This document shows, piece after piece, positions 1-35,092 of a DNA stretch of 64,000 bases. How positions within the stretch are numbered: position 1 is the first letter of the stretch; the number at the start of each line of letters is the position of its first letter. Location: contig NZ_CP051261.1 in the NCBI RefSeq assembly GCF_014236855.1, positions 1,736,001-1,800,000 of the forward strand, in the 5' to 3' direction. This DNA comes from Xanthomonas sp. SI (lineage in GTDB: Bacteria; Pseudomonadota; Gammaproteobacteria; Xanthomonadales; Xanthomonadaceae). A program made the position numbers and the translations under genes. A model generated the notes under the pieces. It was given only the letters and a program-made list of their open reading frames with translations. It did not search any database and was not told where the DNA came from.

Positions 1-3000
1 CGGTTGCAGGGCCTGCCGGCGGTGCACGGGCTGCCGCTGGACCGGCCGCGCCCGGCGCGGCAGGACTTTGCCGGCGGGCGGATCGAGCAGGGGATCGCAG
101 CGGCGACGCTGGCGGGCCTGCAGGCGCTGGCGCAGCGGCACGATGCGAGCCTGTTCATGGTGCTGGAGGCGGCGCTGGCATGGTTGCTGGCCCGCTGGAG
201 CGGGGAACGGGACATCGTCATCGGCACGCCGATCGCCGGGCGGGTGCACCCGGACGTGGAGCCGCTGATCGGGTTCTTCGTGAACACGCTGGTGCTGCGC
301 ACGCAGCTGAGCGGGGAGGAGACGTTCGAGGGGCTGCTGGAGACGACGCGGGAGCGGGTGCTGGAGGCGTACACGCACCAGGAGATCCCGTTCGAGATGC
401 TGGTGGACGAGCTCAAGCCGGTGCGCAGCCTGAGCCATGCGCCGTTGTTCCAGGTGTTGCTGTCGATGCGCAACACCGAGCAGGTGGCCTTGACGCTGCC
501 GGGGCTGGAAGTGTCCTCGCTGGGCGAGGGGTATGAGCAGGCGAAGTTCGACCTGCAGCTGGCGGTGCAGGAGACGGGGGAGGGACTGCGGTTGGTCTGG
601 GGCTATGCGACGCGCCTGTTCGAGGCGGCGAGCATCGACCGGCTGGCGCAGGCGTATGCGCAATTGCTGGCGCAGATCGTCGTGCAGCCGGACGCGCCGT
701 TGGCCGCCCTTTGCTGGCAGGACGCAGCGGCGCAGGCGCAGTTGCTGGCGCAGGGCCGTGGCCCGCACAGCGAGCGCGGCCGCGAACAGCCGTTGATCCG
801 GCAACTGCAGGCGCAGGCACAGGCGACACCGGAGGCGGTGGCGGTACGCTGCGGGGCGGCGCAGTTGACCTATCGCGAGCTGGACCGGGCGTCCAACCGG
901 CTGGCGCAGGCGCTGGCCGAGCAGGGCGTGGGGCTGGGCGCGCGGGTGGGGGTGGCGCTGGAACGGTCGTTGCCGCTGCTGGTGGCGCTGCTGGGCGTGA
1001 TGAAGAGCGGTGCGGCGTATGTGCCGGTGGATGCGCAGCAGGCGCCGGCGCGGGTGCAGGCGATCCTGGAGGATGCCGAGGTGGCGCTGGTGCTGGGAAC
1101 GGGGGCGGCGTTGGCCGGCACGTCGGTCCAGGTCCTGGCCATGGACGGGGCCGCGGAGGCCTCGTGGCTGTCGGCGTACCCGGACGCGGCACCGGCGGTG
1201 GCGCTGGAGGCCACGCACAGCGCGTACGTGCTGTACACCTCCGGTTCGACCGGGGTGCCCAAGGGCGTGGAGGTGCTGCAGCGCGGGCTGACCGACTACT
1301 GCGCCTTCGCGCGAGGGAACTACTACGCCGAGCATCTGGCCGGTGCGCTGGTGGCGACCTCGCCGGCGTTCGACCTGACGGTGCCGAGCTTGTACGTGCC
1401 GTTGCTGGCGGGCGGGTGCGTGACGCTGCTGGCGGAGGCGGACGCCATGGCGGGCCTGGCGGCGGCGTTGGAAGCGGCGTCGGCGCCGGGGTGGTTGCTG
1501 CGCCTGACGCCCTCGCACGTGCAGGGGCTGCTGGCGTTGTCGGATGCGCAGCCGCGGCCGGGGGCGCATGTGTTCGTGGTGGGCGGGGAGGCGTTCGCGG
1601 CGGAGTTGGCGCAGGCGCTGCGGGCGAAGTACCCGCAGGCGCAGGTGTACAACCACTACGGTCCGACCGAGGCGGTGGTGGGGAGCAGCTGGTATGCGGT
1701 AGACGGCCAGGCGCCGTGCAGCGGGATGCTGCCGATCGGCCGGGCGATGGAGAACACGACGCTGTACGTGCTGGACGCGCGGATGGGGCTGCAGCCGGCG
1801 GGGGTGGCGGGGGAGCTGTACATCGGTGGGTGGGGGGTGGCGAAGGGCTATGTGAAGCGGGAGGCGTTGACGGCCGAGCGGTTCGTGGCCAGTCCGTTCG
1901 TGGCGGGGGAGCGGTTGTACCGCAGCGGGGACCGGGTGCGCTGGCGCAACGACGGGCAGCTGGAGTTCCTGGGGCGTCTGGACGACCAGGTGAAGCTGCG
2001 CGGGTTCCGGATCGAGCTGGGGGAGATCGAGAGCCGGCTGCATGCCGAGGGTTCGGTACGCGAGGCGGTGGTGGTGGTGCGCGGGGAGGGGGTGCAGGCG
2101 CGGCTGGTGGCGTACGTGACGCCGGCCGCTGGAGAGGCGGCGGAGGCGTGGATCGACGAGCTGCAGGCGGCGCTGGCGTCGTCCCTGCCGGGCTACATGC
2201 AGCCGTCGGCGTACGTGGTGCTGGAGGCGCTGCCGCTGACGGTGAACGGGAAGGTGGACAAGGGCGCGCTGCCGGAGCCGGTGCATGTGCGCGGGGAGGA
2301 GGAGGAAGCGCCGTCGACCGAGACCGAACGGGCGCTGGCGCAGATCTGGGAGCAGGTTCTGCGACTGCCAGGCATCGGCGTGCACGACAATTTCTTCGAG
2401 ATCGGCGGCGACTCAATCCTGTCGATTCAGATCGTCGCGCGCGCCAATCAGGCCGGGATCGGCATCACCACCCGGCAACTGTTCGAAGCCCAGACCATCG
2501 CGCAACTTGCGCGCTGCGCCGAACAGGCGGTGGAGCGCGCCTCGCAGGCCCCGCAGGGTCCCGTCCAGGGCGAACTGGCGCTGCTGCCGATCCAGAAACA
2601 ATTCCTGGCCGAGGGCGGTCCCGGACTGCATCACTACAACCAGGCCCTGCTGCTGCGCGTGCCGCACGCGATGCAAACCGCCGATCTGCGTCGCATGATC
2701 GAGGCGCTGTACTGGCGCCACGATGCGCTGCGCCTGCGCTTCAGCCAGATCAACGGCGACTGGCATGCCGACCATGCTCCGCTCGACGCAGACACCCTCT
2801 TGCGCGCCTGCGTGACGGAAGGACTGCCAGAGCGTTCCGAAGAGGTGGCCGCATGCGTCGAAGAGCGCTGCGCCTACTGGCAATCGGCTTTCGACCTGGG
2901 CGAAGGCCCGCTGTTGCGTGCGGTCCATTTCCGCGGCGGCGGCACCGCACGTCTGTTGCTGGTGGCCCACCATGTCGTCATCGACGGCGTCTCGTGGCGC

Positions 3001-3915
3001 ATCCTGCTGGCGGACCTGGAACGGGCCTACCGCCAGGTGGAGCGCGGCGAGCAGATCGCGCTCGCGCCCAAGACGACGTCGCTGCAGCAATGGGGACAGG
3101 CGCTGGCCGCTTACGCGCACAGCGACGCATTGCTCGCCGAACGCGAATACTGGCTTTCCCAATGCCAGCAGTCCATCGCCTCACTGCCGAGCGACCGCGC
3201 CGGGAGCGGCAATGGCTCCGTGGCCACGGCCGCCTATGCGCGGCTGGCGCTTTCCGCCGAGGACACCCAGGCGCTTCTCGCTCGATCCAATGCCGCATAT
3301 CGCACCCAGATCAATGAACTCCTGCTCGCCGCGGTCGCGCTGGGGGTGCGTCGCTGGAGCGGCGCAGCAGGCGTGCGCGTCGCGCTGGAAAGCCATGGAC
3401 GCAGCGGTCCGTTCGAACGTCTCGATACCACCCAGACCGTCGGCTGGTTCACCACCCACTATCCCTTGACGCTGTGCTGCGAGCATGCCGAGGTCGGTGC
3501 GACGATCAAGGCGGTCAAGGAGCATTATCGCGCTGTGCCGTACCACGGCATCGGCTACGGTGTGCTGCGCCATCTCGCCGAAGACGCCGAACTGATCGCC
3601 GCCGAGGTGGGCAAGCGTCCCGAACTGACGTTCAACTACCTGGGACAGACGGACCGGGCTACCGACGCGGAGACGTTCCTCGAGATCGCCGAAGAGTCGA
3701 TGGGACGCACCGTCAGCACATTGCGCGAGCGGCGCCATCCATTGACGTTGCGCGGCATGGTCGCGGGCGGACAACTGAGCTTCACCCTGGAATACAGCAA
3801 CGAACGCTACGAAGCGGCGACCATCGCCGCATTCGCCGGGCACATCGAGCAGGCGCTGCGTGAGATCGTGGCGCATTGCGCGGGCAGGGAAAACGTCGAG
3901 TGCACGCCTTCCGAC
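1..3915 (+). other. NRPS module 1: partial C-A-T-E, Asp-like code
   Basis: Partial condensation domain to about 720, adenylation about 780-2270, carrier about 2310-2520, epimerase about 2570-3900. Aligned by hand to the gramicidin PheA domain, the ten pocket residues read DLPRVGHVGK. Known Asp pockets read close to DLTKVGHIGK; His at position 322 and a basic residue at 278 fit an acidic side chain. The E domain predicts a D-residue. The substrate is an inference. Confidence 0.6.
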
Positions 3916-6900
3916 TTCCCGCTGGCGCAGGTCGCGCAGGCGCAACTCGACACGCTGCAGGCGGCGTATCCGCAGATGCTGCGGCTGTATCCGGCTACCC
4001 CGATGCAGCAGGGCCTGCATTTCCATACCAAGCTCGATCCCTCGGCCTATGTCGGCCAGACCTTCCCTGTGCTCAAGGGCGCTTTGGACGCGGTCCGGTT
4101 CCGCGCGGCGTGGCAGGCGCTTGTCGATCGGCACGACGTGTTCCGCACCGCCTTCGTCGACGAGGACGAGCGGCTGCTGCAACTGGTGTCCGCCCAGGCC
4201 ACGTTGCCCTGGCACGAAGAGGACTGGCGCGACCTGCCCGCCGAGGAGCAGGATGCGCGGTTCGAGGCCTATCGCGAGTTGGACCGGGCACGCAGCTTCG
4301 ACTTCCGGCAGGCGCCGCTGATGCGATGCGCGCTGTTCCGGCTGGGCGCGGACAGGCATCGCCTGCTGTGGACGCACCACCACATGCTCTCGGACGGCTG
4401 GTCGCTGCCCATCCTCTACAAGGAGGTGATGAGCCTCTACCAAGGGCTTGTGGACGGTAGCGACGCGCAACTCGCGCCGGCGCCGGCCTACGAACGCTAC
4501 GTCGAGTGGCTGTCGCGGCAGGACCACGACGCGGCGGTCGGTTTCTGGCAGGAACAGTTGCGGACCGTGGAAGCGCCGACGCCGCTGGCCATCGACCGCT
4601 TGCCGGCCGAACACGACAGCGGACAACGCGAGCGCAGCCTGAGCTTGGACGAGGCGGCCAGCGAGCGCCTGTTCGCGCTCGCCCGCAAGCAACGAATCAC
4701 CCTCAACACCGTGATACAGCTAGCGTGGGCCTGCGTGTTGCATCGCTACAGCGGCGAGGACGAGGTGGTGTTCGGCGCGACGATCTCCGGCCGACCGGCC
4801 GAGGTCGTCGGTGTGGAAACGATGGTCGGCCTGTTCATCAACAGCATCCCGGTACGCGTACCGTTGGGCGAGCCGCAGCTTGTGCGCGATGCGCTGGCAA
4901 CGCTGCAGGCGCGCTTCGAGGCGGCCACCTCCTACGGCTACCTCTCGCTGGCGGAGATCCAGCGGCAGTCCGGGGTTACCGCTGGCATGCCGCTGTTCGA
5001 CAGCCTCCTGGTGATCGGCAACTATCCGATCGAAGCGGCGATGGATGCGCGATCGGGCGAGGCCGGGCTCAGCATCGAGAGCAAGGGCCGCCGCGAGGAA
5101 ACCGGATACCGGTTGGCTTTCAACATCAATCTGCGCCAGCGCATCCATCTGCAGTGCGCGTATCGGGCCGAACAGTTCGCCGACGCGACCATCGAGCGGA
5201 TGCTGCACCATTTCCGCGAAGTACTGGTCACGATGCCGGATGCGCTCGATGCGGATGTGCGCAGCCTGGATCCGATGACCGATGCGGAACGCGCTGAGCG
5301 CGTCGCCTGGAATCTGCGTCCAGCGGACTATCCCCGCGATCAGTGCATCCATGCGCTGGTCGAAGCGCAAGCGGCGTTGCGTCCGGAAGCGATAGCCGCC
5401 ACCTTCGGTGCAGACAGCGTGTGCTACGGCGAGTTGAACCGCCAGGCCAACCGCGTCGCGCATTACCTGCGCGGGCAGGGCGTGAGCACCGACACCCTGG
5501 TGGGCCTGTGCGTGGAACGCTCGGTGGAAATGCTGATCGGCATGCTCGGCATCCTCAAGGCCGGCGGCGCCTATGTGCCGCTGGATCCGGACTATCCGGA
5601 GGATCGCATCGCTTTCATGCTTGAGGATTCAGGGGTCGAGATCGTATTGGTCACCAGCGACCTGATGCAGGCACTGCCGGTATTCGACGACCATGCCGTG
5701 CTGCCGCTCGACGCAGGCCTGCGCGAGGGGTTGCTGGCGGGCTGTCCAGATACCGACCCCGCACGCGAGGCGGTCGGCGCACACGGCGGATCGCTGGCGT
5801 ACATGATCTATACCTCAGGTTCGACCGGAACGCCGAAAGGCGCGCTGATCGAGCATCGCAGCATCGTGCGCCTGGTGCATCGCCCGGACTACGTGAGCTT
5901 GGACGCGGGCGGCGTGATGGCGCAGGCCTCCAATAGTTCGTTCGACGCCGCCACCTTCGAGATCTGGGGGGCGCTGGCCAACGGCATGCGCCTGCAGTTC
6001 GTCGCGAAAGACGTACTGCTCGACCCGAATGCCCTGGCGCGGAGCCTGGTGCGGACCGGCATCACCACGATGTTCGTCACCACCGCGATCCTCAACCAGA
6101 TGTCGATCGCCAACCCGTCCGGATTCGCGCCGCTGCATTGCCTGCTGTTCGGCGGCGAAGGCGTGGACGTCGAAGCGGTGGGGCGAGTGCTCGATGCCGG
6201 CAAGCCCGGCCGCCTGGTGCATGTCTACGGCCCGACCGAGAACACCACGTTCAGTACCGCCTACGAAATCCGCGAGCGCCGCAGCGATACCTATCCGATC
6301 GGCAGGGCGATTTCCGGCAGCACCCAGCATGTACTGGGCCGCAATCTGCGACCGCTGCCTTGCGGAGTGATCGGCGAGCTCTATCTGGGCGGCGACGGCG
6401 TGGGCCGCGGCTACCACCGCCGTCCCGAGCTGAGCGCCGAGCGCTTTCTCGCCGGCGCCGGGTCCGATGCCGGCCGGTGCTACAAGACAGGCGACCTGGT
6501 ACGCCAGCTGCCGGGGGGCGACATCGTCTTCGTCGGCCGCGTCGACGATCAGGTCAAGGTGCGCGGCTTCCGCATTGAACTGGGCGAGATCCAAACGCAC
6601 CTGTTGGCCCACGACGCCATCCGCGACACGGTCGTGGTGGCGCGACGCGACGGCGAGACGACGCGGCTGGTCGCCTACGTGGTCGCCCATCCAGGCAACG
6701 AGCCGGTCAACGAGCTGCTGCTGGCGAAGGAACTGCGCGCCCATCTCAAGCGCCTGCTGCCTGACTACATGGTGCCGGCTGCATTCGTCGCGATGGATGA
6801 ACTGCCGCTCAATCGCAATGGCAAGGTCGACAGGCAGCGCTTGCCCGAACCCGACTACCAGTACCAGTCGCAACACACCTATCTGCCGCCGCGCACGGAC

Positions 6901-9900
6901 GCCGAGCAGGCGTTGGCCGCGATCTGGCAGCAGGTATTGCGTATCGACCAGATCGGCGTCCAGGACAACTTCTTCGAGATAGGCGGCGATTCGATCCTGC
7001 TCATCCAGGTGGTTTCGCGCGCCAACCATGCCGGATTGCGCATCAGTACCCGGCAGTTGTTCCAGAACCAGACCATCGCCGAACTGGCAGCCGCGATGGA
7101 GACCGAGGACGCGCACACCGTGCTGGTGTCTCAGGCGCCTGTGGAAGGCCCGATGCCGCTGTTGCCTGTGCAGCGAATGTTCCTGGAAGGAGAGGCGCTT
7201 GATCGCCACCATTTCAATCAGGCGATGCTGCTGGAGACGCCTCCGGATTTCGACGCGACCACGCTGGCTGCCGTGCTGGAAGCGCTGTACCTGCGCCACG
7301 ACGCACTGCGCCTGCGCTTCGTGCAGAACACCGATGGCTGGGAGGCGGTCCATGCCCCGTTCGATCCAGCGATGGCGAGGGCCAGCGCGGCGATCGAGCT
7401 GCCGGTGGCGGGCGTTCCCTGGGCCGAACACGTGTCGGCGCGCTGCGCCGAGTGGCAGCGCCGTTTCCATCTTGCGGACGGTCCGTTGTTGCGCGCGATC
7501 TACTTCCCGCCCGAACGCGCCGGTGATGCCGGTCGCTTGCTGCTGGCGGCGCACCACATCGTGGTGGACGGCGTGTCCTGGCGCATTCTGCTGGGCGACC
7601 TGGAACTCGGCTACGCGCAGCATGCGCGCGGCGACGCGGTGGCGCTTGCGCCCAAGACCTCGTCGTTGCAGCAATGGGGACGCGCTCTGGGAGAGTACGC
7701 GCGCAGCGAAACGCTGTTGCGGGAACGCGACTACTGGCTGGCGAACGCGTGCGCTGGCGGCTTGGCCACCGACGCGACGGTCGCGCAGGCGGCGGGTCCA
7801 GGGACCATCGCGACCAACCGCAGCGTGTTGTTGGGCCTGTCCAGCGAAGATACGCGGGCATTGCACCAGCAGTGCAACGCGGCCTACCGCACCCGCATCA
7901 ACGAACTGCTGCTGGCCGCGGTGTACCTGGGTGTGCGCCGCTGGAACGGCCGTCGCGAACTGTGCTTGCGCCTGGAGGGGCACGGCCGCGAAGCCCTGTT
8001 CGACGAACTCGATCTCACCCAGACCGTCGGCTGGTTCACAAGCGTCTTTCCGGTAGTGCTGGACGTGGACGGCGACGGCGTCGCGGATGCGATCAAGTCG
8101 GTGAAGGAGCGCTACCGCGCCATTCCGCGCAATGGCATCGGTTATGGGGTACTGCGTTACGTCGCCGGTGACGTCGCGCTGCGCGAGGCCGCTGGCGATC
8201 AAACCGATGCGCTGCTGTTCAACTACCTGGGCCAATTCGACCAGATACTCAACGATAAGAGCCATTTCGGCCCCGCCCGGGAATCGATCGGCCCGCAGAC
8301 CAGCCTGGCGCGGCAGCGCTCGGCACTGCTTGCGCTCAGCGGAAAGACCTTCGCCGGACAGTTGCAATTCACCCTGTCCTACAGCAGCGAACGCTACGAA
8401 GAAGCCTCCATGCGCGCGCTCGCCGCCGGCATCGAACAGGCGCTGGTGGAAGTGGTGCGCCATTGTCAGCGGCCTGGCGTCGGCGCCTGGACGCCTTCGG
8501 ACTTCCCGCTGGCGCGGATCGACCAGCAGCGCCTGGACGCGCTGCACGCACGCCATCCCGAGCTGTCGCGGCTGTACCCGGCCACGTCGATGCAGGCCGG
8601 CATGTTGTACGAGAGCCTGCTCGACAGTGCGGCCTACGTGGTGCAGAACTTCCCGGTACTGCGCGGCAGCCTGGACCTGGCGGCATTCCGCCACGCCTGG
8701 CAGCAAGTGGTGATGCGCCACGACGCGTTCCGTACCGCCTTCGTGGGCGGGACCGAAGATCTGCAGCAACTGGTGCTGAGCGCCGCGCCGCTGTCCTGGC
8801 ACGAGGAAGACTGGCGCGGCCTGCCTGAGCCGGAACAGCGCCTCCGTTTCGACGCCTACCGCCAGGAGGATCGGTGTCGCGGCTTCGACTTCGAACGTCC
8901 GCCACTGATGCGCATCGCGGTATTCCGCCTCGGCGAGGGCCGGTATCAGCTGTTGTGGTCGTTGCACCACATCCTGCTCGATGGCTGGTGCTTGCCGCTG
9001 GTCTACCGCGACGTGATCGAGTTCTACCGCGCCTATGTGCAAGGCCGTGCCGCCGTGTTGCCCGTTGCGCCGGCATACGAGCGCTACATCGCCTGGTTGC
9101 TGGACTCGGATGTGGAGCGGGCGCGCGACCACTGGCATGGCGTGCTCAAGGAAATCGACGCGCCGACCCCCCTGGTGATCGACCGCCTGCCGGTGGGGGG
9201 CGGCCATGGCCAGCGCGAATACGCGTTCGAACTGGACGAGGCGCAGACGCAGACACTGCAGGCATACGCCAAGGCGCATCGCACCACGGTCAACACCCTG
9301 CTGCAGTGGGCCTGGGCCTATTTGCTGCATCGCTACAGCGCCGAACCGGAGGTCGTGTTCGGCGCAACCATCTCCGGGCGTGCGGGACAGGTGCCAGGAG
9401 TGGAGGAGATGATCGGGTTGTTCATCAATACCATTCCGGTGAAGGTCGGATTCGGGCCTGGACAGACGATCGGCGATGCGCTGGCGGCGCTGCATGCCGA
9501 CTTCCAGTCCGGCAGCGAGTACGGCTATCTGTCGCTGCCGGAAATCCGCCGCCAGTCGCGCGTCAAGCAGGGCGTGCAGCTGTTCGATAGCCTGCTGGTA
9601 TTCGAGAACTATCCGCTCGACGCGGTGACGGGCGATGCCGCCGCGTCCGCGGACGCGCAACTGCAGATCGAGGAGCCGGGCAACAGCGAGGCCACCACGT
9701 TCAAGCTGACGCTCGTCGCCGCGCATACCCGGACCCTGCGGGTGAAGTTCGGCTATCGCGCAGAACGCTTCAACGACGCCGCGATCGCGCGCATGGCGGG
9801 GCATCTGGGCCGGATACTGGTGCAGATGACACGGCCGGGATGCACCCCGGCCGACATCGACCTGCTGGCGCCGGAGGAGCGGGGGCAGCTGGCGTCGTGG

Positions 9901-11784: not shown

Positions 11785-11940
11785 GCGTCATCGATGTCTT
11801 GCAGGAATGCCGCGACGCCGGCATTCGCATCGCCGCCAGGGATGGCAAACTCCTAGTGGGCGACGCCCAGAGCCGGCTCAGCCCGGACTTGCGCCGGCGC
11901 CTGGCCGAGCACAAATCCGAGATCCTGGCGTATCTCGATG
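11781..11940 (+). other. TubC-type N-terminal docking domain
   Basis: Residues 1-53 (MSVIDVLQECRDAGI, then a beta hairpin with RDGKLLVGD and helices ending KSEILAYL) match the TubC N-terminal docking fold. Such domains bind a short acidic peptide at the C-terminus of the upstream synthetase, here GDQEFIEL. Confidence 0.85.
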
Positions 11941-25466: not shown

Positions 25467-25591
25467 GCTCGAACAAGCGCCTTTTCCGTTTCGCCTTGCG
25501 CGTCGTGCAAGCGCCGCCGGTCGGGGACACCGGCGGGGACATCCCTCACTTCCACACGCGTCGCCGATCCAGGCAGCCAATCACCAGGTGA
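25463..25591 (+). CDS. Candidate 42-residue basic peptide overlapping the NRPS stop
   Basis: A 42-codon frame begins at an ATG that overlaps the synthetase stop (ATGA), the same junction seen between the two synthetases and between the dioxygenase and thioesterase genes. The product is basic (many Arg, Lys and His) and begins MSSNKRLFRFALRVVQ. No domain is recognised. It ends ten bases before the adaptor gene, so it may instead be a translated spacer that couples the adaptor gene to the synthetase. Confidence 0.25.
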   Translation: MSSNKRLFRFALRVVQAPPVGDTGGDIPHFHTRRRSRQPITR

Positions 25592-25600
25592 ACCACAAGC

Positions 25601-26848
25601 ATGGATATTGCAAGAAAGTCTAGCGGCACCAAGCAATGGTTCCGCAAGCGGTGGGTGTGGGGCGTCGCCGCCGCGCTGGTGGTGGTGGTCGTTCTCACCC
25701 GAACCGGGTTCGGCAGCGCTGCGTACTCGGTGGACAAGGATGACGTCGTGATCGGCACGGTGCAGCGCGGCGACTTCTCGGTCCAGGTCCGCGGCATCGG
25801 CGTGCTGGTGCCCAAGGACATCCACCTGTTGGCCGTGAATGTGGACGGCCTGGTCGAACGCATCAACGTCGAGGCCGGCGCGGCGGTCAAGAAAGGCGAT
25901 GTCGTTGCCATCCTGAGCAATCCGCGCCTGAACGAGCAGCTGCTGCAGGCGCAATGGGAAATCGATGCCCAGATAAAGCAGAACCGCGCGGCCGAATCGA
26001 TGTTGCGCTCGCAGCTGGCCGACCTGCGCTCGGAGGCGAAGAACGCGGAACTCGACTATCTCAGCGTCAAGGTCAAGTACGACGCCGAGAAGAAGCTGGT
26101 CGAACAGAAGATCGTGTCCCGCATCACCGCCGAGCAATCCAGGATCGTGATGGAGCAGAACTTCCACAAGATCGAAGCGCAGACCGAACGGGTGAAGCGC
26201 ATGCAGGAAAGCCTGGCGGCGACGACCGAGGCCAATGTCTCGGTCGTTTCGAAGCTGGAGAAATCCAAGGACCTCATTCAGCAGCAAATCGACGACCTGA
26301 CCATCCGTGCCGGCATCGACGGCGTGGTGCAGCAGATGTCGCTGCAGCTCGGGCAGCGGGTGACCGCAGGCACCCAGGCCGGCCAGATCGCCCGCCAGGA
26401 TGACCTGGTCGCCCTGCTCGACGTGCAGGACTTCCAGATCAACGACGTCGCGCTCCAGCAAGCGGTGGTGGTCGATACCCGCACCAGCAAGATTCCCGGC
26501 CGGGTGGCGCGCATCGCGCCGTCGGCGACCAACGGCGTGGTCAAGGTCGAAGTCGTGCTGACCGGCAAGATGCCGCCGGAGGCCCGTCCCGACCTGAGCG
26601 TGGAAGGCATCATCGACATCGAGAAGAAGCGCAACGCGCTATTCGTCGAACGCCCGCCTTTCGCCAAGAGCCAGGGGAAGGTCGAGCTATACCGACTCGA
26701 TGGCAGCGAGGCCTCGCGCCGCTCGGTGCAGTTCGGACGCGCATCGACGCGCTATATCGAAGTGCTGGGCGGGCTGCAGCCGGGCGATCAGGTCATCGTG
26801 TCCGACTCGTCGGCTTGGAGCAGCCACGACAAGATCTCGGTCAAGTAG
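25601..26848 (+). CDS. Periplasmic adaptor (HlyD/MacA family)
   Basis: Membrane-fusion protein that links an inner-membrane ABC transporter to an outer-membrane channel, 415 residues. An N-terminal anchor lies at residues about 17-35 (VWGVAAALVVVVVL). It is followed by a lipoyl/barrel-sandwich half (VDGLVERINVEAGAAVKKGD), a long charged coiled-coil hairpin at about 105-230, the second lipoyl half (IRAGIDGVVQQMSLQLGQRV) and beta-barrel segments to the end. It sits 12 bases before the ABC ATPase gene, and with the permease it forms a complete MacA/MacB-like pump. Export of the peptide made by the upstream synthetases is the likely role, from context. No outer-membrane channel gene is nearby. 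Confidence 0.9.
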   Translation: MDIARKSSGTKQWFRKRWVWGVAAALVVVVVLTRTGFGSAAYSVDKDDVVIGTVQRGDFSVQVRGIGVLVPKDIHLLAVNVDGLVERINVEAGAAVKKGDVVAILSNPRLNEQLLQAQWEIDAQIKQNRAAESMLRSQLADLRSEAKNAELDYLSVKVKYDAEKKLVEQKIVSRITAEQSRIVMEQNFHKIEAQTERVKRMQESLAATTEANVSVVSKLEKSKDLIQQQIDDLTIRAGIDGVVQQMSLQLGQRVTAGTQAGQIARQDDLVALLDVQDFQINDVALQQAVVVDTRTSKIPGRVARIAPSATNGVVKVEVVLTGKMPPEARPDLSVEGIIDIEKKRNALFVERPPFAKSQGKVELYRLDGSEASRRSVQFGRASTRYIEVLGGLQPGDQVIVSDSSAWSSHDKISVK

Positions 26849-26860
26849 GCGGAATCAGCC

Positions 26861-27568
26861 ATGTCTGACAGCGAACCGCTCATCCAGCTGCAGGGCTTGC
26901 GCAAATCCTTCTTCACCGACGAGGTGGAGACGCGCGCCCTGGACCACATCGACCTTACCGTCAGGCGCGGGGAATATGTGGCGTTCTCCGGGCCGTCCGG
27001 TTGCGGCAAGTCCACGCTGCTGTCGCTGCTGGGGCTGCTCGACGCGCCGACCGCCGGACGCTACCTGCTCGGTGAGCATGACGTATCCACCATCGGTCGC
27101 GACGAACGCGCGCGCATCCGCAACCGCGAAATCGGATTCGTGTTCCAGTCGTTCAATCTGATCAGCGACATGACCGTCTCGGAAAATGTCGCATTGCCGC
27201 TGTCCTATCGCGGCGACCTCGGCGCCCATGAGGTCGCGACGATGGTGGAACGCGCGTTGCACCGGGTCGACATGTCGCATCGGGCGAAACACTTCCCCTC
27301 GCAGCTTTCCGGGGGTCAGCAGCAACGCGTGGCCGTCGCGCGGGCGGTGGTGGCCAGCCCGCTGCTGATCCTGGCCGACGAGCCGACAGGCAACCTCGAC
27401 TCGAAGAACGCCGAAACGGTGACAGGACTTCTGGAAGGCCTGCACGCGGAAGGATCCACGATCTGCCTGGTCACCCACAATCCGGAATACGCTGCGCGGG
27501 CGAGCCGCCAGGTCGATCTTCTGGATGGACGGATCCTCTCCGATTCGGCGGCGCGGGCCGCAGGCTGA
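26861..27568 (+). CDS. ABC transporter ATP-binding protein (MacB/LolD type)
   Basis: Cytosolic ATPase of 235 residues that powers the adjacent permease. Walker A is GPSGCGKST (44-52), the Q-loop glutamine is Gln96, the signature is LSGGQ (149-153) and Walker B ends LADE (170-173). The family includes MacB and LolD, which act on substrates in the outer leaflet or periplasm rather than pumping across the membrane. The permease gene starts eight bases after its stop. Its partners and position right after the synthetases suggest export of the peptide product or of a periplasmic precursor. Confidence 0.95.
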   Translation: MSDSEPLIQLQGLRKSFFTDEVETRALDHIDLTVRRGEYVAFSGPSGCGKSTLLSLLGLLDAPTAGRYLLGEHDVSTIGRDERARIRNREIGFVFQSFNLISDMTVSENVALPLSYRGDLGAHEVATMVERALHRVDMSHRAKHFPSQLSGGQQQRVAVARAVVASPLLILADEPTGNLDSKNAETVTGLLEGLHAEGSTICLVTHNPEYAARASRQVDLLDGRILSDSAARAAG

Positions 27569-27576
27569 GGACCCGA

Positions 27577-29991
27577 ATGTCCTTCCTCTCCGACCTGCGC
27601 TATGCCTTGCGTCTTTTGCTGAAGACGCCGCAGTTCACGCTGTTGACCGTGCTCGTGCTGGCCGGCGGCCTGGCGATCAGCATCTATACCTATTCGGTGC
27701 TGAACACCATGATGTACAAGGCGCTGCCGATCCCGGCCAGCGAGACCATGGTCAGGGTGCTCGGCAAGAAGGACGGCCGGACCGCCTTGATCGACGCATT
27801 CGAGCTCGCGCAATTGCGCCACACGCGCTCGCTCGACGGGGTCGCGGCATACCAGACCGGCCGCTCGGTGATCAGCGAACTCGATGCCAGCCGCAGCGTG
27901 AAGGCGACCTTCGCCGAGTGGAGCATCTTCCAGTTCGCGCGCACGCAGCCCGCGCTAGGGAGGGGCTTTCTGCCGGAAGACGCTGTGTCCGGAGCCGAGC
28001 CGGTGGCGGTGATCGGGCACAAGATATGGCGCTCGGTGTACGGCGCCGATCCGGACATCGTGGACAAGGTGGTGGAGATCAACGGACGCGCCACGCGGAT
28101 CGTGGGGGTGATGCCGAAGGGTTTCATGTTCCCCATCAGTTCCGAGATCTGGCTGCCGCTCACGCAGCGCGAGCTCAATCCGACGACCTATGGCGTGTCC
28201 TCGTTCAACGCCTACGCGCGCCTGCGCCCGGATGTCTCGCGCAACGAAGCCGAGGCCGACCTGACCACGCTGCTGCGCGCCACCTACGAGAACTATCCGC
28301 GCCGGGAAGGCGACGATGCGCTGCTGGACGACATCCGCGTGGACACCTTCCAGTCCGCGCAGACCGGTCCGGAAGGCGCCTTCGTCTTCGCAGTGCTCAA
28401 CGTGGTGTCGATCTTCATTCTGCTGCTGGCCTGCGTCAACGTCGGCAACATGCTGCTGGCGCGTACCAACGAGCGCATCCGCGAAATCGCCGTGCGCGTC
28501 GCATTGGGCGCGCCACGCACGCGCCTGGTTCTGCAGATGATGATGGAAAGTGCGCTGATCTGCGTGATCGGCGGCGTCCTGGCGCTGGCGCTTGCGGGTT
28601 GGGCATTGAGCGCGAGCAACCAGTTCCTCGCCTCAACCTTCCAGGGTGACCTGCCGTTCTGGTGGGACTGGGGCCTGGACACCGGCGCGGTGCTGTCGGC
28701 ACTGGGCTTCGTGTGCCTGGCCATCTTCCTGGTTTCGGTGATCCCGACCTGGAGCGCGACCAACATCAGTTCCAGCGCGCTGTTGCGCGACGGCACCCGC
28801 GGCTCGCAAGGACGGCGCAGCGGACGCGTATCGCGGATCCTGGTGATCGTCGAGATCGTGCTGATTTCCGTGGTGATGGTGATCGGCAGCGTCATGGCGA
28901 TCGTCGCCTATCATGCGGCGCGTATCGATTTCGGCATCGACACCACCAACCTGTTGAACATGCCGGTGGAGCTGACGGGCGAGTCCTACAACACTCCGCA
29001 GAAGCAGCTTCAGTTCTACGAGCGGCTGATCGCCGATCTGCGCCACAATCCCGAGATCGAGACCGCAGGCGTGCTGCAGGAAGTCGGGCAGGTGCGCTTC
29101 GGCGTGGATGGAACCGAGTATCCGCGCGAAAGCGACTATCCCAAAGCCACGCTGGTCGTCGCGTCGGAGGCCCGGCAGCCGATCGGGGTACGCCTGATCG
29201 AAGGGCGTTACTTCGACACTCGCGACAACGCGACCGGCTTGAAGACCGTTGTGGTGAGCGCCAGCATGGCCAAGGCGCAGTGGCCGGTATCGGGGGCGCT
29301 GGGCCAACGCGTGCGCATCATGCAGCAGGGTGTGGAGCCGGTCGACCGCATCGTGATCGGGGTGGTGAGCGATGCCCGTCGGGGCGACCTGCTCAAGACC
29401 ACATCGAGCAGCTTCGCCTCGCTGTATGTGCCGCTGCCGCAGGTGCCGCTGCAGGAAGCCGCCGTACTGATCCGGCACTACGGCAACGTCGATGCGGCGC
29501 GCAGTGCCATCTATCGGACTGTCGCCGGCATAGATCCCTACATGGCGCCGGCCAGAATCACCAGCTACGAAGAAGTGCTGCGCCAGCTGACCCTGATGGC
29601 AACCACGATGACGGACTTGTTCGTGCGCTGCGGCATCTTCGCCATGCTGCTGGCGATGACCGGTATCTATGGATTGAGCAGCAACGCCGTAGTGCAGCGT
29701 ACCAACGAGATCGGCCTGCGCCGCGCCATCGGCGCGCGCGACCGCGACATCATCGCGCTGTTCCTGAAGCAGGGCGCTAGACAACTGGGAGTGGGTCTGG
29801 CGATCAGCCTGTTGCTCTCCGCGGCGATCCTGCTCGCGGTGTCGAGGTTCGTCACGGTGGGACCATGGGTGCTCGTATCGATCGGGCTGGGCGTGGCCGC
29901 CTGCGTCTCGGCGCTGGTGCTGGTGGCGATCTTTATCGCCACGCGCCGTGCCGTGTTGTACGAGCCGGGGGCGGCGCTGCGCTACGAATGA
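27577..29991 (+). CDS. ABC transporter permease, duplicated FtsX/MacB type
   Basis: Inner-membrane permease of 804 residues with two repeats of a periplasmic MacB-like core plus an FtsX domain. The N-terminus (DLRYALRLLLKTPQFTLLTV) leads into a first membrane segment at about 20-42. Further hydrophobic segments lie at about 270-400, about 425-450 and in the last 130 residues, where the second FtsX repeat includes NEIGLRRAIGARDRDI. Usual MacB has one such half fused to the ATPase; here the permease is double-length and the ATPase separate, as in ADOP-type permeases. It is the third gene of the export set. The dioxygenase gene follows after 108 bases. Confidence 0.92.
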   Translation: MSFLSDLRYALRLLLKTPQFTLLTVLVLAGGLAISIYTYSVLNTMMYKALPIPASETMVRVLGKKDGRTALIDAFELAQLRHTRSLDGVAAYQTGRSVISELDASRSVKATFAEWSIFQFARTQPALGRGFLPEDAVSGAEPVAVIGHKIWRSVYGADPDIVDKVVEINGRATRIVGVMPKGFMFPISSEIWLPLTQRELNPTTYGVSSFNAYARLRPDVSRNEAEADLTTLLRATYENYPRREGDDALLDDIRVDTFQSAQTGPEGAFVFAVLNVVSIFILLLACVNVGNMLLARTNERIREIAVRVALGAPRTRLVLQMMMESALICVIGGVLALALAGWALSASNQFLASTFQGDLPFWWDWGLDTGAVLSALGFVCLAIFLVSVIPTWSATNISSSALLRDGTRGSQGRRSGRVSRILVIVEIVLISVVMVIGSVMAIVAYHAARIDFGIDTTNLLNMPVELTGESYNTPQKQLQFYERLIADLRHNPEIETAGVLQEVGQVRFGVDGTEYPRESDYPKATLVVASEARQPIGVRLIEGRYFDTRDNATGLKTVVVSASMAKAQWPVSGALGQRVRIMQQGVEPVDRIVIGVVSDARRGDLLKTTSSSFASLYVPLPQVPLQEAAVLIRHYGNVDAARSAIYRTVAGIDPYMAPARITSYEEVLRQLTLMATTMTDLFVRCGIFAMLLAMTGIYGLSSNAVVQRTNEIGLRRAIGARDRDIIALFLKQGARQLGVGLAISLLLSAAILLAVSRFVTVGPWVLVSIGLGVAACVSALVLVAIFIATRRAVLYEPGAALRYE

Positions 29992-30099
29992 CGGCGCCTC
30001 GGGCGTCGTGACGGTGTGCTGTTGCAGAGCCGCGATCCGCGGCAGACGAGCGAAATGGACGCCGCCGGCCGGGACCGGCGCCATAGGGAGAGAGGGGCA

Positions 30100-31098
30100 A
30101 TGACAAGATTGGCAGACATCGGCATCGAAGATCTGCAGGATGTGCAGGGCACGCCCCTGCTTTTGAACGTGGCAGGCGAGGGCGTGCGCGCGACCGAGTG
30201 GGCCGCGGAGAATCGCGGGCATGTCGAACGATTGCTGATGGAGAACGGCGCGTTGCTGATACGCGGATTGACCTTCGTGGGCAGCCAGCAATTCGGCACC
30301 GCCTTGTCGACGCTGTTCGGCGAAGACCTGATCCAGTACGTCTACAGGTCCACGCCGAGGACCGAGCTGCGCGGCAATGTGTATACCGCGACCGAGTACC
30401 ATCCGGACCAGGTCATTCCGCAGCACAACGAGAATTCGTACTCGAACAGGTGGGCGATGCGCCTGGGCTTCCTGTGCACCATCCCCTCGCAGACCGGAGG
30501 CGCCACGCCGATCTGCGACAGCCGCAAGGTCTATGCGCAGATGCCCGATGCGCTACGCGACCGTTTCGAGCGCAACGGGGTGATGTACGTACGCAACTAT
30601 TCCGAAATCGACGTGCCTTGGACGGAGGTGTTCCAGACCAGCGACCGGGCGGACGTGGAGGCGTTCTGCCAAGCCAATCAACTGGCGTTCGAGTGGCTGG
30701 AGGACGGGCTGCGCACCTGCCAGATCAACCAGGCGTCCGCCGTCCATCCGGACAGCGGCGACAAGGTCTGGTTCAACCAGGCACACCTGTTTCACGTCAC
30801 CAATCTGGACCCCGAGATCCGCGAAGCGCTGCTGACCACCATGGGCGAGCGGCGCCTACCGCGCAACACCTACTATGGCGACGGTTCTCCCATCGACATT
30901 GGCGCCCTGGACACGGTGCGTGCGCTCTACGAGCGCAATGCGATCCGTTTCGATTGGCAGCGCAACGATCTCTTGTTACTCGACAACATGCTGTATTCGC
31001 ATGGTCGCGAGACCTATTCGGGCAACCGCCAGGTACTGGTCGGAATGGCGCGCGTGCACGGCACCGAAGGCGGCCGGTCCGAAGGGGCCGTGCTATGA
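30100..31098 (+). CDS. Fe(II)/2-oxoglutarate dioxygenase, SyrP/TauD-like
   Basis: Probable beta-hydroxylase of a carrier-bound amino acid, 332 residues. The start is the ATG at 30100, preceded by a good ribosome site (GGGAGAGAGGGG); longer in-frame starts have none. The metal-binding triad is visible as His109-x-Glu111 in PQHNENSYSN and His301 in LYSHGRETYSGNRQ, with Arg310 placed to bind 2-oxoglutarate. The same triad layout occurs in SyrP, which hydroxylates Asp on a carrier protein in syringomycin synthesis. Modules 1 and 4 have Asp-like pockets, so beta-hydroxy-Asp is the natural prediction, but the substrate is inferred. Its stop overlaps the thioesterase start (ATGA). Confidence 0.88.
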   Translation: MTRLADIGIEDLQDVQGTPLLLNVAGEGVRATEWAAENRGHVERLLMENGALLIRGLTFVGSQQFGTALSTLFGEDLIQYVYRSTPRTELRGNVYTATEYHPDQVIPQHNENSYSNRWAMRLGFLCTIPSQTGGATPICDSRKVYAQMPDALRDRFERNGVMYVRNYSEIDVPWTEVFQTSDRADVEAFCQANQLAFEWLEDGLRTCQINQASAVHPDSGDKVWFNQAHLFHVTNLDPEIREALLTTMGERRLPRNTYYGDGSPIDIGALDTVRALYERNAIRFDWQRNDLLLLDNMLYSHGRETYSGNRQVLVGMARVHGTEGGRSEGAVL

Positions 31099-31862
31099 AG
31101 AGTCCCTGGTTCATCCGTTTTCCGGCAGGGCCGCGCGTGAGTATGCGTTTGTTCTGCTTTCCCTATGCCGGTGGTCATGGGCACCTTTTCCGCGGCTGGC
31201 CTGCGCGAATGCCGCATTCGGTACAGGTGATCGGGATCCAGGCGCCGGGCAAGGGCGCGCGCGTGCTGGAAACGCCTCATGCCTCACTCGATGGCCTGGT
31301 GGACGACCTGCTCGACGCGATCCTGCCATTGCTGGCCGAAGGCCCATTCTGCTTCTTCGGCCACAGCAACGGCGCCATGGTCGCGTTCCAGCTGGCGAGC
31401 CGCCTGCAATCGCTTGGCTTGCCGGTTCCCGAGCGCCTGCTGCTCTCGGCCAGTCCCGCACCATGGACGCGGATCTTCGCCCGACCTTATTCGGCGATGG
31501 ACAATGCCGAGTTCAAGCAGGTGCTGCGCGAGCTGGAGGGCACCCCGGCTGCGCTCTTCGACGACAGCGAGTTGTTCGAGCTGATGCTGCCGGGGCTGCG
31601 CGCGGACTTCGCGCTGGCCGAAAGCTATCGCCACGCCCCGGAGTTGATGCTGCGGATGCCCGTCACGGTGTTCTACGGAGCGACCGACGGGATCGAGTGG
31701 GAGAGGATCCAGGCCTGGCAGGAGCGTTTCTGCGACCCTGTCGAATTCCGGGAGATCGCGGGCGGGCATTTCTTCATCCACACGCACGAGGAATTGCTCG
31801 TGCATGAAGTGATGGGCCGCTTCGGGCAGCATCCGAGCGCCTGGGGCAGGGCGATCGCCTAG
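31095..31862 (+). CDS. Type II thioesterase
   Basis: Stand-alone alpha/beta hydrolase of 255 residues that clears wrongly primed or stalled carriers of the assembly line. The start is set by the ATGA overlap with the dioxygenase gene. It has the family opening (LFCFPYAGGHGHLFRGW), the nucleophile motif GHSNG (Ser91), a late GGHFF with the catalytic histidine (His225), and the usual length for this family (about 230-260). It belongs to the NRPS operon; the hydroxylase gene follows after 74 bases. Confidence 0.93.
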   Translation: MKSPWFIRFPAGPRVSMRLFCFPYAGGHGHLFRGWPARMPHSVQVIGIQAPGKGARVLETPHASLDGLVDDLLDAILPLLAEGPFCFFGHSNGAMVAFQLASRLQSLGLPVPERLLLSASPAPWTRIFARPYSAMDNAEFKQVLRELEGTPAALFDDSELFELMLPGLRADFALAESYRHAPELMLRMPVTVFYGATDGIEWERIQAWQERFCDPVEFREIAGGHFFIHTHEELLVHEVMGRFGQHPSAWGRAIA

Positions 31863-31936
31863 TTCGGCGATTTGGATCGACGACATGCATCCGGTCGGCG
31901 CCGCCGGCCTCCAGTAGCGAAGGAAAAGCGAGAGAA

Positions 31937-33544
31937 ATGGACACCGAAACCCGATTGTACCTGCGCGAAGACGTGTATTTCGAACCCTTGGTCAACCAAT
32001 GGTATGCCTGGCCTTATCTGCTGCCGCCGGTCACTGGCGCTCGCCACATGGTCAACACGCATCGCCGGATCATGAGTTCGTTCGTGAAGAACTACAAACT
32101 GCACATCATGGCGGTGAATCAGCCCGGCATGGCCGGTGCCGAGTTCCTGGACTGCAACGAAGACCAGGTCGACGACATCAAAGCCTTGGTCGCCCGCATC
32201 GACGAACAGCACGCGGATCTGGTAGAACTGTCCGACGCGGTTCGCCAGCTCGACGAATTGCTTCGCACGCATACCTCCGGCGAATCGATCGAGTACCTGT
32301 ATGCGCAGGTGCCGCCGCCGTTGAAGGGCTATGTCGAGATCTTCATGGACCTTGAGCATCACCCTTCATACCGCCTGCTGGAAAGCCTTCTGTACAAGAG
32401 CCCGTACTACAAGCCGTCGTTGCAGAGCATTGCCTTCGGCATCCTCGGCGAACGCGGAGACCGCCCGTTCGTGCTGAGCACGCCGCGCCTGCCCACCGCC
32501 GACAGCCTGCACGTGGAAGTGGACTACAACGACCCGCTACTGGACGCGGTGTTTGCAGCACGGACGCAGCCGCTAACGGAATCCGCGCTGGATGCTTTGT
32601 TCGCCGGCAAGACTGTCTCCGGCGGACTGCACTATCGCAAGCTGTTCACCGAGACGCCCCCCGGGCACCGCAACCAGCCAGTGGAATCCGGCGTTCGCCT
32701 GCAGTATCTCGGGCATGCCGGATTCCTGCTGCAGACCTCGCAGGTGTCGATCGTCGTGGATCCCGTCATCGCGTCGCGCGGTGCGGACTTCTCCGACGAA
32801 GTCATCAGTTTCAGCCAATTGCCCGACCGCATCGACTACGTCTGCATCACCCACAACCATCAGGACCACGCCAATCTCGAATCGCTGCTGCAGCTTCGGC
32901 ACAAGATCGGCAAGATCCTGGTGCCCAAGAACAACGGCGGCACCCTGTCGGACCCATCGCTGCGCCTGTTGCTCAAGCAGTTCGGCTTCGATGTCATGGA
33001 GATGGACGACATGGACGAGTTGCCGGTGCCTGGCGGGCGCATCGTCAGCGTGCCCTTCCTCGGCGAACACGGCGATCTCAACGTGCGCTCCAAGACGGCC
33101 TGGTTCTACGAATTGCTCGGCAAGAAGATCTTCATGGGAGCCGATTCGTCCAATCTGGACCCGAGCATGTACCGCCATATCGGCCGCTGGCTTGGCGAGA
33201 TGGACGTGATGGCGATCGGCATGGAATGCGTCGGCGCCCCCTACACCTGGCTGTACGGCGCGCTGCACACCAAGCTGGTGAGCAAGAAGATCAAGGAATC
33301 GCGGCGCCTGAACGGATCCGACTTCGCACAGGCCTACGAGATCGCGGAGATCTTCAAGCCTTCGCAGATCTACCTGTATGCATTGGGCATGGAGCCTTGG
33401 TACAAGTACTTCATGGGCCTGGACTACGACGAATCGTCCGAGCAGATCGTGCAGACCGGCAAGATGCTGGACGCCTGCCGTGACAAGCAGATTCCTGCCG
33501 AGCGCCTGTACGGGAAAATGACTCTGGAACTCGCCGGCACCTGA
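31937..33544 (+). CDS. CmlA-like diiron beta-hydroxylase
   Basis: Probable non-haem diiron oxygenase that beta-hydroxylates an amino acid held on a carrier domain, 535 residues. The first 240 or so residues match the CmlA-specific N-terminal domain (VNQWYAWPYLLPP). The rest is a metallo-beta-lactamase fold with THNHQDH (His306, His308, Asp310, His311), Glu377 in LGEHGD, Asp403 in GADSSN and a nearby late His444, the ligand pattern of CmlA from chloramphenicol synthesis rather than of a hydrolase. Length also matches CmlA (about 530). A search tool could call this gene a generic MBL-fold hydrolase. As last gene of the NRPS operon it probably acts on one of the seven visible modules or on one further upstream; which is unknown. 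Confidence 0.88.
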   Translation: MDTETRLYLREDVYFEPLVNQWYAWPYLLPPVTGARHMVNTHRRIMSSFVKNYKLHIMAVNQPGMAGAEFLDCNEDQVDDIKALVARIDEQHADLVELSDAVRQLDELLRTHTSGESIEYLYAQVPPPLKGYVEIFMDLEHHPSYRLLESLLYKSPYYKPSLQSIAFGILGERGDRPFVLSTPRLPTADSLHVEVDYNDPLLDAVFAARTQPLTESALDALFAGKTVSGGLHYRKLFTETPPGHRNQPVESGVRLQYLGHAGFLLQTSQVSIVVDPVIASRGADFSDEVISFSQLPDRIDYVCITHNHQDHANLESLLQLRHKIGKILVPKNNGGTLSDPSLRLLLKQFGFDVMEMDDMDELPVPGGRIVSVPFLGEHGDLNVRSKTAWFYELLGKKIFMGADSSNLDPSMYRHIGRWLGEMDVMAIGMECVGAPYTWLYGALHTKLVSKKIKESRRLNGSDFAQAYEIAEIFKPSQIYLYALGMEPWYKYFMGLDYDESSEQIVQTGKMLDACRDKQIPAERLYGKMTLELAGT

Positions 33545-34609: not shown

Positions 34610-34909
34610 TCAGTAGGCGTGCCGCGGATTGTCCTGCGCAGCACCCGTCTGGAAGTGCTCAATAACGCTAGCCACCGAGCGGTGCTCGGTCATAGCCATC
34701 AATGCAGGCAGCGGCACCCCTTGCTTACCGGCCTCGGTGACAAATGCCGATCGTAGGCTATGCGCCCCGAAGTCTCCCTCCAGCCCTGCCAGCTTTGCCC
34801 GGCGCTTCACAATCGCCGCCACCGAGCCTGGGAGCAGAGCAGGGCCGACACACCCACCGAGGTGTCTGACCTGATTTCGCAAGGCGCGCCCTCTCATATG
34901 TGTAAACAA
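34610..34909 (-). pseudogene. C-terminal remnant of a tyrosine site-specific recombinase
   Basis: The minus strand encodes about 99 residues that include AHSLRSAFVTEAGKQG and TEHRSVASVIEHFQTGAA. These match the catalytic HxLR box and the later (G/E)H box of phage-type integrases that carry SLR-SGFVTEA motifs. The N-terminal catalytic arginine region is absent, the N-terminal 30 residues look out of register, and the tyrosine region is degenerate. It is therefore a broken integrase, consistent with an old mobile element next to the NRPS operon. Confidence 0.75.
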
Positions 34910-35062
34910 CTTTCAGCCGTTGGCGGTAGTTATTTACATCTGGAGCCGGAGTGTGAGGCGGATACTTTTGTCTAGCAAGGACCTCGTAAGCTTCTTTATA
35001 TCTTTGGTAAACACAACCCTTCTGAGCGACACCTGTTGCACGTGTTGATAAAGATCTTGAAG

Positions 35063-35092
35063 AGAGCCCCGTCTTTACGGGGCTTTTCTTTT
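35063..35092 (+). terminator. Rho-independent terminator
   Basis: GAGCCCCG, a six-base loop and CGGGGCTT form a hairpin followed by TTTTCTTTT on the plus strand. No convincing plus-strand gene lies close upstream, so it may belong to a lost gene or insulate the sugar operon that starts downstream. Confidence 0.75.

What the first reader, a model, noticed from the sequence alone, without database searches (positions are those of the whole stretch)
1..33544. Unrecognised NRPS pathway for a probably beta-hydroxylated peptide
Seven modules are visible with hand-read codes suggesting D-Asp-like, D-Ile/Val-like, Ser, Asp-like, beta-amino-acid-like, unresolved, Thr, then a thioesterase. The set is followed by its own export pump, a type II thioesterase and two hydroxylases of unrelated families. 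I cannot match this order to a product I know. No siderophore receptor or acyl-ligase is in the window, and upstream modules are missing, so the class (lipopeptide, siderophore or other) is open.
Basis: partly seen in the sequence, partly recalled or inferred. Interest (0 to 1): 0.85.

Follow-up and report, generated by a model that had tools for sequence, protein, structure and literature searches.

The report
Orphan eighteen-module lipopeptide pathway
A bacterium that seems to be a grass-associated Xanthomonas carries, on a horizontally acquired stretch of DNA, a complete gene set for an unknown 18-building-block, probably hydroxylated and lipid-started peptide that may have its lipid cut off again on the way out of the cell.

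Summary
Confirmed and extended. The missing left part was fetched: four synthetases (7+3+4+4 modules) form one 18-module line, with a lipid-type starter condensation domain first and a thioesterase last. Upstream lie a penicillin-acylase-type amidase and a SyrD-type exporter. The hand codes hold; one Asp-like code, DLPRVGHVG, occurs five times. The set lies in a ~93 kb island absent from three of four congeners read. Tahibacter aquaticus and Lysobacter spongiae carry the same accessory set with overlapping codes but different modules, so this is a peptide family. A looser 17-module sibling sits in another congener. Best reading: an N-acylated, Asp-rich, beta-hydroxylated ~2 kDa peptide, exported by the SyrD-type pump, delipidated by the acylase (inferred) and released by the MacAB-like pump; siderophore is less likely. 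Genome length equals that of Xanthomonas sp. SI (PMC7479056), whose paper lists no synthetase cluster for SI. No product match was found, but antiSMASH and MIBiG could not be run. New variant of a known kind; moderate interest.

The parts
1..11784 (+). Third synthetase (N3), 3' part; begins 3992 bases left of the window. Four modules in all; three A domains in the window
715..2298 (+). A domain, code DLPRVGHVG (Asp-like), module followed by an epimerization domain
   Evidence: E motif near 2968
5275..6864 (+). A domain, code DAFFLGVTF (Ile/Val-like), module followed by an epimerization domain
   Evidence: E motif near 7552
9868..11469 (+). A domain, code DVWHISLID (Ser)
11781..25466 (+). Fourth synthetase (N4): TubC_N docking domain, four C-A-T modules, thioesterase
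13317..14882 (+). A domain, code DLPRVGHVG (Asp-like)
16479..18050 (+). A domain, code VRWVFSLSD (beta-alanine-like)
19632..21188 (+). A domain, code DGFAIASVA (unresolved, aromatic-like)
22788..24380 (+). A domain, code DFWNIGMVH (Thr)
24690..25421 (+). Type I thioesterase domain (GHSYGG)
25601..26848 (+). HlyD/MacA-like periplasmic adaptor of the export pump
26861..27568 (+). ABC ATPase of the export pump (MacB/DarD-like)
27577..29991 (+). MacB/FtsX permease (ADOP-like) of the export pump
30016..31098 (+). TauD/clavaminate-synthase-like oxygenase, putative beta-hydroxylase; true start may be about 30100
31095..31862 (+). Type II thioesterase
31937..33544 (+). CmlA-type diiron beta-hydroxylase
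34613..34909 (-). C-terminal remnant of a tyrosine integrase near the right edge of the island
35013..35243 (.). Right edge of the island lies here: congener backbone resumes at 35222-35243, with one weaker (80%) piece from 35013 in one congener

Best explanation
The set encodes one colinear 18-module synthetase line (N1 to N4). SHOWN by sequence: 18 C-A-T modules, a lipid-type starter C domain first, three E domains (after modules 9, 12 and 13), a thioesterase last, an upstream acylase plus SyrD-type exporter, a downstream MacAB-like pump, type II thioesterase, TauD and CmlA oxygenases. INFERRED: the order N1-N2-N3-N4, from gene order and docking domains (Pfam for N4, by eye for N2 and N3). 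A fatty acid is joined to residue 1. A peptide of roughly Leu/aromatic?-Orn-like-Val-Orn-like-Asp-Glu-Asp-Asn-D-aromatic?-unresolved-Asp-D-Asp-D-Ile/Val-Ser-Asp-betaAla-aromatic?-Thr is built. TauD and CmlA hydroxylate some carrier-bound residues at the beta carbon, Asp and an aromatic residue being the first candidates. The thioesterase releases or cyclises it. The SyrD-type pump moves the lipidated form to the periplasm, the acylase removes the lipid, and the MacAB-like pump sends the mature peptide out, as for pyoverdine. The likely role is competition with other microbes.
For: Domain order and open frames. Starter C: best PDB match is the RzmA lipid starter domain at 126.7 bits against 83.2 for the next molecule, while a control internal C domain scores 275.5 with Txo2 and 49.4 with RzmA (RzmA identity from passages of PMC7804268). 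The acylase has the Gly-Ser at residue 378 where solved beta chains begin. In all 9 relative loci that I read with a close acylase, the SyrD-type exporter lies next to it. In the genus, close acylases (46% or more, a limit set after seeing the list) occur in 5 of 20 genomes, all within the 8 of 20 with a TauD match (one-sided Fisher 0.0036, own genome included, shared descent not corrected for). CmlA motifs THNHQDH, GEHGDL and ADS are kept (their role as metal site recalled). PvdE-PvdQ-PvdRT order of events: passages of PMC13366587.
Against: No product, expression or enzyme data. NCBIfam's PvdQ model matches far below its cut-off (92.7 against 950 bits) and the best-scoring solved relative is a D-succinylase, so lipid removal is not shown. 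Several codes have no firm substrate, and names of substrates other than Val for DALWMGGTF are recalled. Which residues are hydroxylated is unknown. Long perfect repeats between N1 and N3 (up to 3286 bp) could hide an assembly error in module number. If the genome is strain SI, its reported antifungal effect is much like that of strain SS, so no activity can be pinned on this cluster.
Confidence: 0.6

Rival explanations
1. An ordinary lipopeptide that keeps its lipid when it acts outside; the acylase is for self-protection (it inactivates product that stays in the periplasm) and not a maturation step.
For: GdnD deacylates glidonins and lowers their toxicity to the producer, and Tem25 in the telomycin cluster is compared to it (passages of PMC10587159). 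Here too lipid start and acylase co-occur.
Against: The acylase-exporter pairing and a separate second pump fit a two-step export-and-maturation path better, but this is only an argument from gene order.
Confidence: 0.3
2. A siderophore in which beta-hydroxy-Asp residues bind iron, matured as pyoverdine is.
For: Five Asp-like modules, two beta-hydroxylases, and PvdE/PvdQ/PvdRT-like transport and acylase genes. Marine relatives such as the P. luteoviolacea locus carry similar accessory genes.
Against: No TonB-dependent receptor among the island genes given to Pfam (three small frames left of the acylase were not scanned) or among 7 flanking proteins of relatives. SyrD-type and MacAB-like pumps also serve antibiotics (recalled). 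The strain's paper reports a xanthoferrin cluster (PMC7479056).
Confidence: 0.15
3. A decayed or mis-assembled locus: silent, or with fewer modules than the sequence shows.
For: Perfect repeats of 3286 and 3104 bp between N1 and N3; an integrase remnant and low-GC gaps flank the genes.
Against: All four synthetases and the accessory genes are open without stops, with 21 HHxxxDG motifs (18 C and 3 E). The same accessory set is kept in two other genera at 52-79% identity.
Confidence: 0.1

Closest known systems
Tahibacter aquaticus DSM 21667 cluster (unassigned; contigs broken)
   Same: Acylase 57%, SyrD-type exporter 67%, HlyD 57%, ATPase 75%, MacB 55%, TauD 73%, TEII 52%, CmlA 79%, same order within each contig; shared codes DLPRVGHVG, DMYYQALVV, DGKDVGVVD, DAFFLGVTF
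   Different: Last module is Asp-like, not Thr; first-module code DMVGFGCLF; other modules differ
Lysobacter (Marilutibacter) spongiae 119BY6-57 cluster (unassigned; contigs broken)
   Same: Acylase 58%, SyrD 64%, HlyD 56%, ATPase 73%, MacB 56%, TauD 70%, TEII 52%, CmlA 75%; codes VRWVFSLSD and DLPRVGHVG shared, DGWAIASVA close to DGFAIASVA
   Different: Ends beta-Ala-like, DGWAIASVA, Phe-like code, TE instead of Thr, TE
X. sacchari staM-syrP synthetase locus (Royer et al. 2013, PMC3849588) and the 17-module cluster of unnamed congener G202
   Same: G202 has acylase 52%, SyrD 55%, 17 modules, TEII 39%, TauD 36%, CmlA 38%; its code DAWLLGCTF equals the unknown signature reported for X. sacchari
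   Different: Other codes (Dab-like, Pro, Ala, Glu by recalled signatures), no HlyD or MacB match in the 90 kb read, other chromosomal place. A CmlA named X. sacchari in the protein search is 84% identical to ours, so that species may also hold a closer relative
META-B lipopeptide clusters of Xanthomonas (PMC3849588)
   Same: Giant lipopeptide synthetase of similar length (16 modules in X. albilineans), StaM (recalled as CmlA family) and in some strains SyrP, an ABC exporter (sections 6 and 8)
   Different: META-B has Dpg genes, MbtH and AraC; none was seen here and MbtH is absent from the genome; the word acylase does not occur in that paper
Pyoverdine system (PvdQ, PvdE, PvdRT-OpmQ)
   Same: Lipid-started peptide, SyrD/PvdE-type exporter, Ntn acylase and MacAB-like pump present together
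   Different: No chromophore genes or receptor among the genes identified, different peptide; acylase is below the PvdQ cut-off

Membership tests
Starter-C (lipid-initiated) synthetase | First module begins with a C domain of the lipid-starter kind | tested here: met
   with internal C domain as control
Starter-C (lipid-initiated) synthetase | Product carries a fatty acyl group | not testable with these tools
   no metabolite data
CmlA diiron beta-hydroxylases | CmlA_N domain, metallo-beta-lactamase fold, metal-site motifs | tested here: met
TauD/SyrP-AsnO-like beta-hydroxylases | TauD fold family with iron-binding His-x-Asp/Glu and distal His | tested here: met
   Pfam TauD 149.7 bits; QHNENSYS and YSHGRETY in the translation; ligand roles recalled
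TauD/SyrP-AsnO-like beta-hydroxylases | Acts on Asp or Asn | not testable with these tools
   no assay
PvdQ acylases | NCBIfam PvdQ cut-off reached | tested here: not met
   92.7 against 950 bits; Penicil_amidase family met at 735 bits
Cyclic peptide (SyrD/PvdE) exporters | TIGR01194 cut-off reached | tested here: met
   393.7 against 286.2 bits
META-B clusters of Xanthomonas | Dpg genes, MbtH, AraC beside the synthetases | tested here: not met
   MbtH absent from the whole genome (control genomes rang). Dpg and AraC genes were not searched by model; none is among the frames given to Pfam
Beta-hydroxy-Asp siderophores | Cognate TonB receptor and iron regulation | tested here: inconclusive
   No receptor found in the genes examined; iron regulation not tested
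Known product cluster (MIBiG) | Same module order, codes and accessory genes as a characterised cluster | not tested
   MIBiG and antiSMASH not available; 6 of the 14 distinct codes were searched in paper full texts and gave one paper, where DALWMGGTFK is named a valine signature

The most novel reading that the evidence does not exclude
A family of 17- to 18-residue hydroxylated peptides in Xanthomonadales uses the pyoverdine way of working (make it lipidated, move it across the inner membrane, cut the lipid off, send it out by a MacAB-like pump) for a product that is not a siderophore. In this genome the product is Asp-rich, with several beta-hydroxy-Asp residues made through an unusual DLPRVGHVG adenylation domain, possibly metal- or calcium-binding. 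Members diversify by copying and swapping whole modules.
Probability: 0.35. Interest if true: 0.7.

Novelty: new variant of a known kind. Interest (0 to 1): 0.5.

Why it matters
If the reading is right, an un-named family of large hydroxylated lipopeptides with built-in delipidation exists in Xanthomonadales, and this genome holds one member in one piece. The strain whose genome length matches is described as non-pathogenic, and it slowed two of six plant-pathogenic fungi in the lab (PMC7479056). Strain SS did much the same, so this cluster is only a candidate cause. The near-perfect copies of Asp-type modules in N1 and N3 also give a recent natural example of module duplication, if the assembly is right.

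Tried and rejected
Taking the finding as ending at the window's left edge: rejected, 11 modules lie outside. META-B membership: rejected (no MbtH; no Dpg gene among the frames scanned). WAP-8294A2, lysobactin, plusbacin or tripropeptin as product: considered from memory only; module number and codes do not seem to fit, but no such cluster was fetched to test it (passages on WAP-8294A2 seen in PMC9410377, not used). Clusters of L. enzymogenes, G331, Alteromonas and Methylophaga: they share CmlA at 54-61% and, where read, acylase, exporter and TEII, but have other codes (four Asn-type codes each in the parts of L. enzymogenes and G331 that were read), so they are cousins, not the same kind. A PDB search with the DLPRVGHVG domain gave only general A domains among the 60 of 222 shown. 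The DNA pattern for FDLT-x-P-type A domains hit 4 of 398 genomes of the order: own (4 sites, for 5 such domains), T. aquaticus (6), G018 (1, not in an A domain) and G137 (1, not examined). It missed L. spongiae, whose domains read the same code. Paper searches that found nothing useful: (one listing, not read). Rfam: no hit in the window.

Substrate names for codes are recalled signatures, except Val for DALWMGGTF, read in a passage of PMC3943440. No predicted structure was made.
Full report
What was checked. The window is bases 1736001-1800000 of a single 5,246,417-base contig. The seven modules, thioesterase, pump, type II thioesterase, TauD and CmlA genes are all present at the stated places.

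The missing left part. Stretches to the left were fetched. Four synthetases follow each other: N1 1698624-1720808 (7 modules), N2 about 1720735-1732014 (3), N3 1732008-1747784 (4) and N4 1747781-1761466 (4 plus thioesterase). A search of the whole genome with one A domain lists 25 matches; the best 18 are these modules, the next best, a 500-residue frame at 38%, lies elsewhere. Before N1 lie an acylase (1694139-1696973, true start probably near 1694529) and a SyrD-type exporter (1696970-1698673). Pfam finds a TubC docking domain at the start of N4; N2 and N3 start with a similar-looking stretch that was not scanned. N1 starts directly with a C domain.

Codes in order: DAWLIGAVV, DVENMGGVT, DALWMGGTF, DAENVGTVT, DLPRVGHVG, DGKDVGVVD, DLPRVGHVG | DATKVGEVG, DGFWIASVA+E, DMYYQALVV | DLPRVGHVG, DLPRVGHVG+E, DAFFLGVTF+E, DVWHISLID | DLPRVGHVG, VRWVFSLSD, DGFAIASVA, DFWNIGMVH+TE. 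Likely residues, from recalled signatures: unresolved (Leu/aromatic), Orn-like, Val, Orn-like, Asp, Glu, Asp, Asn, D-aromatic?, unresolved, Asp, D-Asp, D-Ile/Val, Ser, Asp, beta-Ala, aromatic?, Thr. Val for DALWMGGTF is supported by a passage of PMC3943440.

Lipid start. The first C domain of N1 matches the RzmA starter domain best (126.7 bits; next molecule 83.2). A control internal C domain of N1 matches Txo2 best (275.5) and RzmA at only 49.4. That 7C1H and the related entries are RzmA starter structures was read in passages of PMC7804268. No acyl ligase was seen in the set.

Hydroxylases. The CmlA-family protein keeps the metal-site motifs of CmlA. The TauD-family protein has His-x-Glu and a distal His (translation; roles recalled). 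Neither substrate is known.

Relatives. A scan of genome contigs (one genome for each of 84,980 species, by its description) with CmlA gave 14 loci; close relatives only are found that way. T. aquaticus and L. spongiae carry the pump, TauD, TEII and CmlA in the same order, and on other contigs the acylase-exporter pair next to a synthetase start. Their contigs hold DLPRVGHVG, DMYYQALVV or VRWVFSLSD and other codes of the window's line, but end differently. More distant clusters (L. enzymogenes, a Rhodanobacteraceae MAG, G331, Alteromonas, P. luteoviolacea) have acylase, exporter and CmlA, in the MAG and Alteromonas on separate contigs or stretches. Of 7 genomes searched with the acylase, 6 have a 40-58% relative; in the seventh the best match is 35%. 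In all 9 relative loci that I read with a close acylase the exporter is adjacent; those of G412 and G108 were not read at the acylase.

A sibling in the genus. Congener G202 has acylase, exporter, 17 modules, TEII, TauD and CmlA at 2.62-2.69 Mb. Its code DAWLLGCTF equals the unknown signature reported for X. sacchari by Royer et al. 2013, who also noted clustered daT, staM and syrP there (section 13 read). So part of this wider family was seen before; the word acylase does not occur in that paper. In the genus, close acylases (46% or more) are in 5 of 20 genomes and TauD relatives in 8 of 20, the 5 lying within the 8 (Fisher 0.0036; limit chosen after seeing the list, own genome included, shared descent not corrected for). 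Weaker acylase matches (31-35%) are in nearly every genome: 19 of 20 have some match.

Island. The right flank is found in own and in 13 of 19 other genus genomes at 92-96% along its length. In three of four congeners fetched (G202, G197, G412) the backbone left of own 1678007 is followed within 0-830 bp by the backbone right of own 1771222; for G413 only the right flank matched in the stretch fetched. So about 93 kb is extra in this genome. The left edge is just after a gene whose product ends in DDDIPF, typical of SSB (recalled), and an 83-bp repeat (96%) of that edge recurs at about 1693360, between two RHS-type genes and the acylase. An integrase remnant lies near the right edge. No tRNA gene and no longer repeat joins the two edges. 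GC is 0.617 in the RHS part, 0.686 in the synthetases and 0.668-0.689 in the backbone.

Which organism. The length 5,246,417 equals that given for Xanthomonas sp. SI in PMC7479056 (passages; section 18). That paper describes GW, SS and SI as probably non-pathogenic and states that the synthetase Cluster 1 is in strain GW only (1,997,794-2,067,075) and absent from SI and SS. The present cluster lies at 1.70-1.76 Mb. Either the SI cluster went unmentioned, or strains or tables were exchanged; the match rests on length alone.

How it most likely works, and rivals, are given in the fields above. Pyoverdine order of events was read in passages of PMC13366587, acylase as detoxification in passages of PMC10587159. 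Lipid removal and hydroxylation sites are inference.

Limits. No antiSMASH, MIBiG or metabolite data. The perfect repeats (3286 and 3104 bp) make the module count depend on the assembly. Two CmlA relatives at 92 and 97% exist in unnamed contigs (best 120 of 432 hits listed, 8000 candidates scored) but their surroundings were not read. Of PMC3849588 I read sections 6, 8, 13, 14 and 16; of the other papers named, passages or single sections only.

Noticed in passing
window 34613-34909 and own genome 1678008-1771222: Integrase remnant near the right edge and an 83-bp near-perfect repeat of the left edge: the cluster sits in a ~93 kb island next to an ssb-like gene, absent from three of four congeners read.
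   Followed up: partly
own genome 1712671-1720302 against 1733602-1738089 (window -2398 to 2089): Perfect repeats of 3286 and 3104 bp between N1 and N3: very recent module duplication or gene conversion, or an assembly artefact.
   Followed up: partly
whole genome: Genome length equals that of Xanthomonas sp. SI, whose paper (PMC7479056) reports no synthetase cluster in SI.
   Followed up: partly
L009:420-11585: Two large RHS-repeat proteins with small downstream genes lie in the island left of the acylase, between the two copies of the edge repeat.
   Followed up: no
L017:5982-7817, L025:6019-7830; also L054-L057, L127-L131: Cousin synthetase clusters with CmlA in Alteromonas, Methylophaga, L. 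enzymogenes and G331; a NodU-type carbamoyltransferase (by eye) is seen in the Alteromonas and Methylophaga loci.
   Followed up: partly
G202:C1:2622112-2685376: 17-module sibling cluster in a congener, apparently like the X. sacchari locus noted in 2013.
   Followed up: partly
whole genome: No MbtH protein found although the genome has an 18-module synthetase.
   Followed up: no
window 48912-50474: Asparagine-synthase-like protein outside the island, about 15 kb right of the hydroxylases.
   Followed up: no
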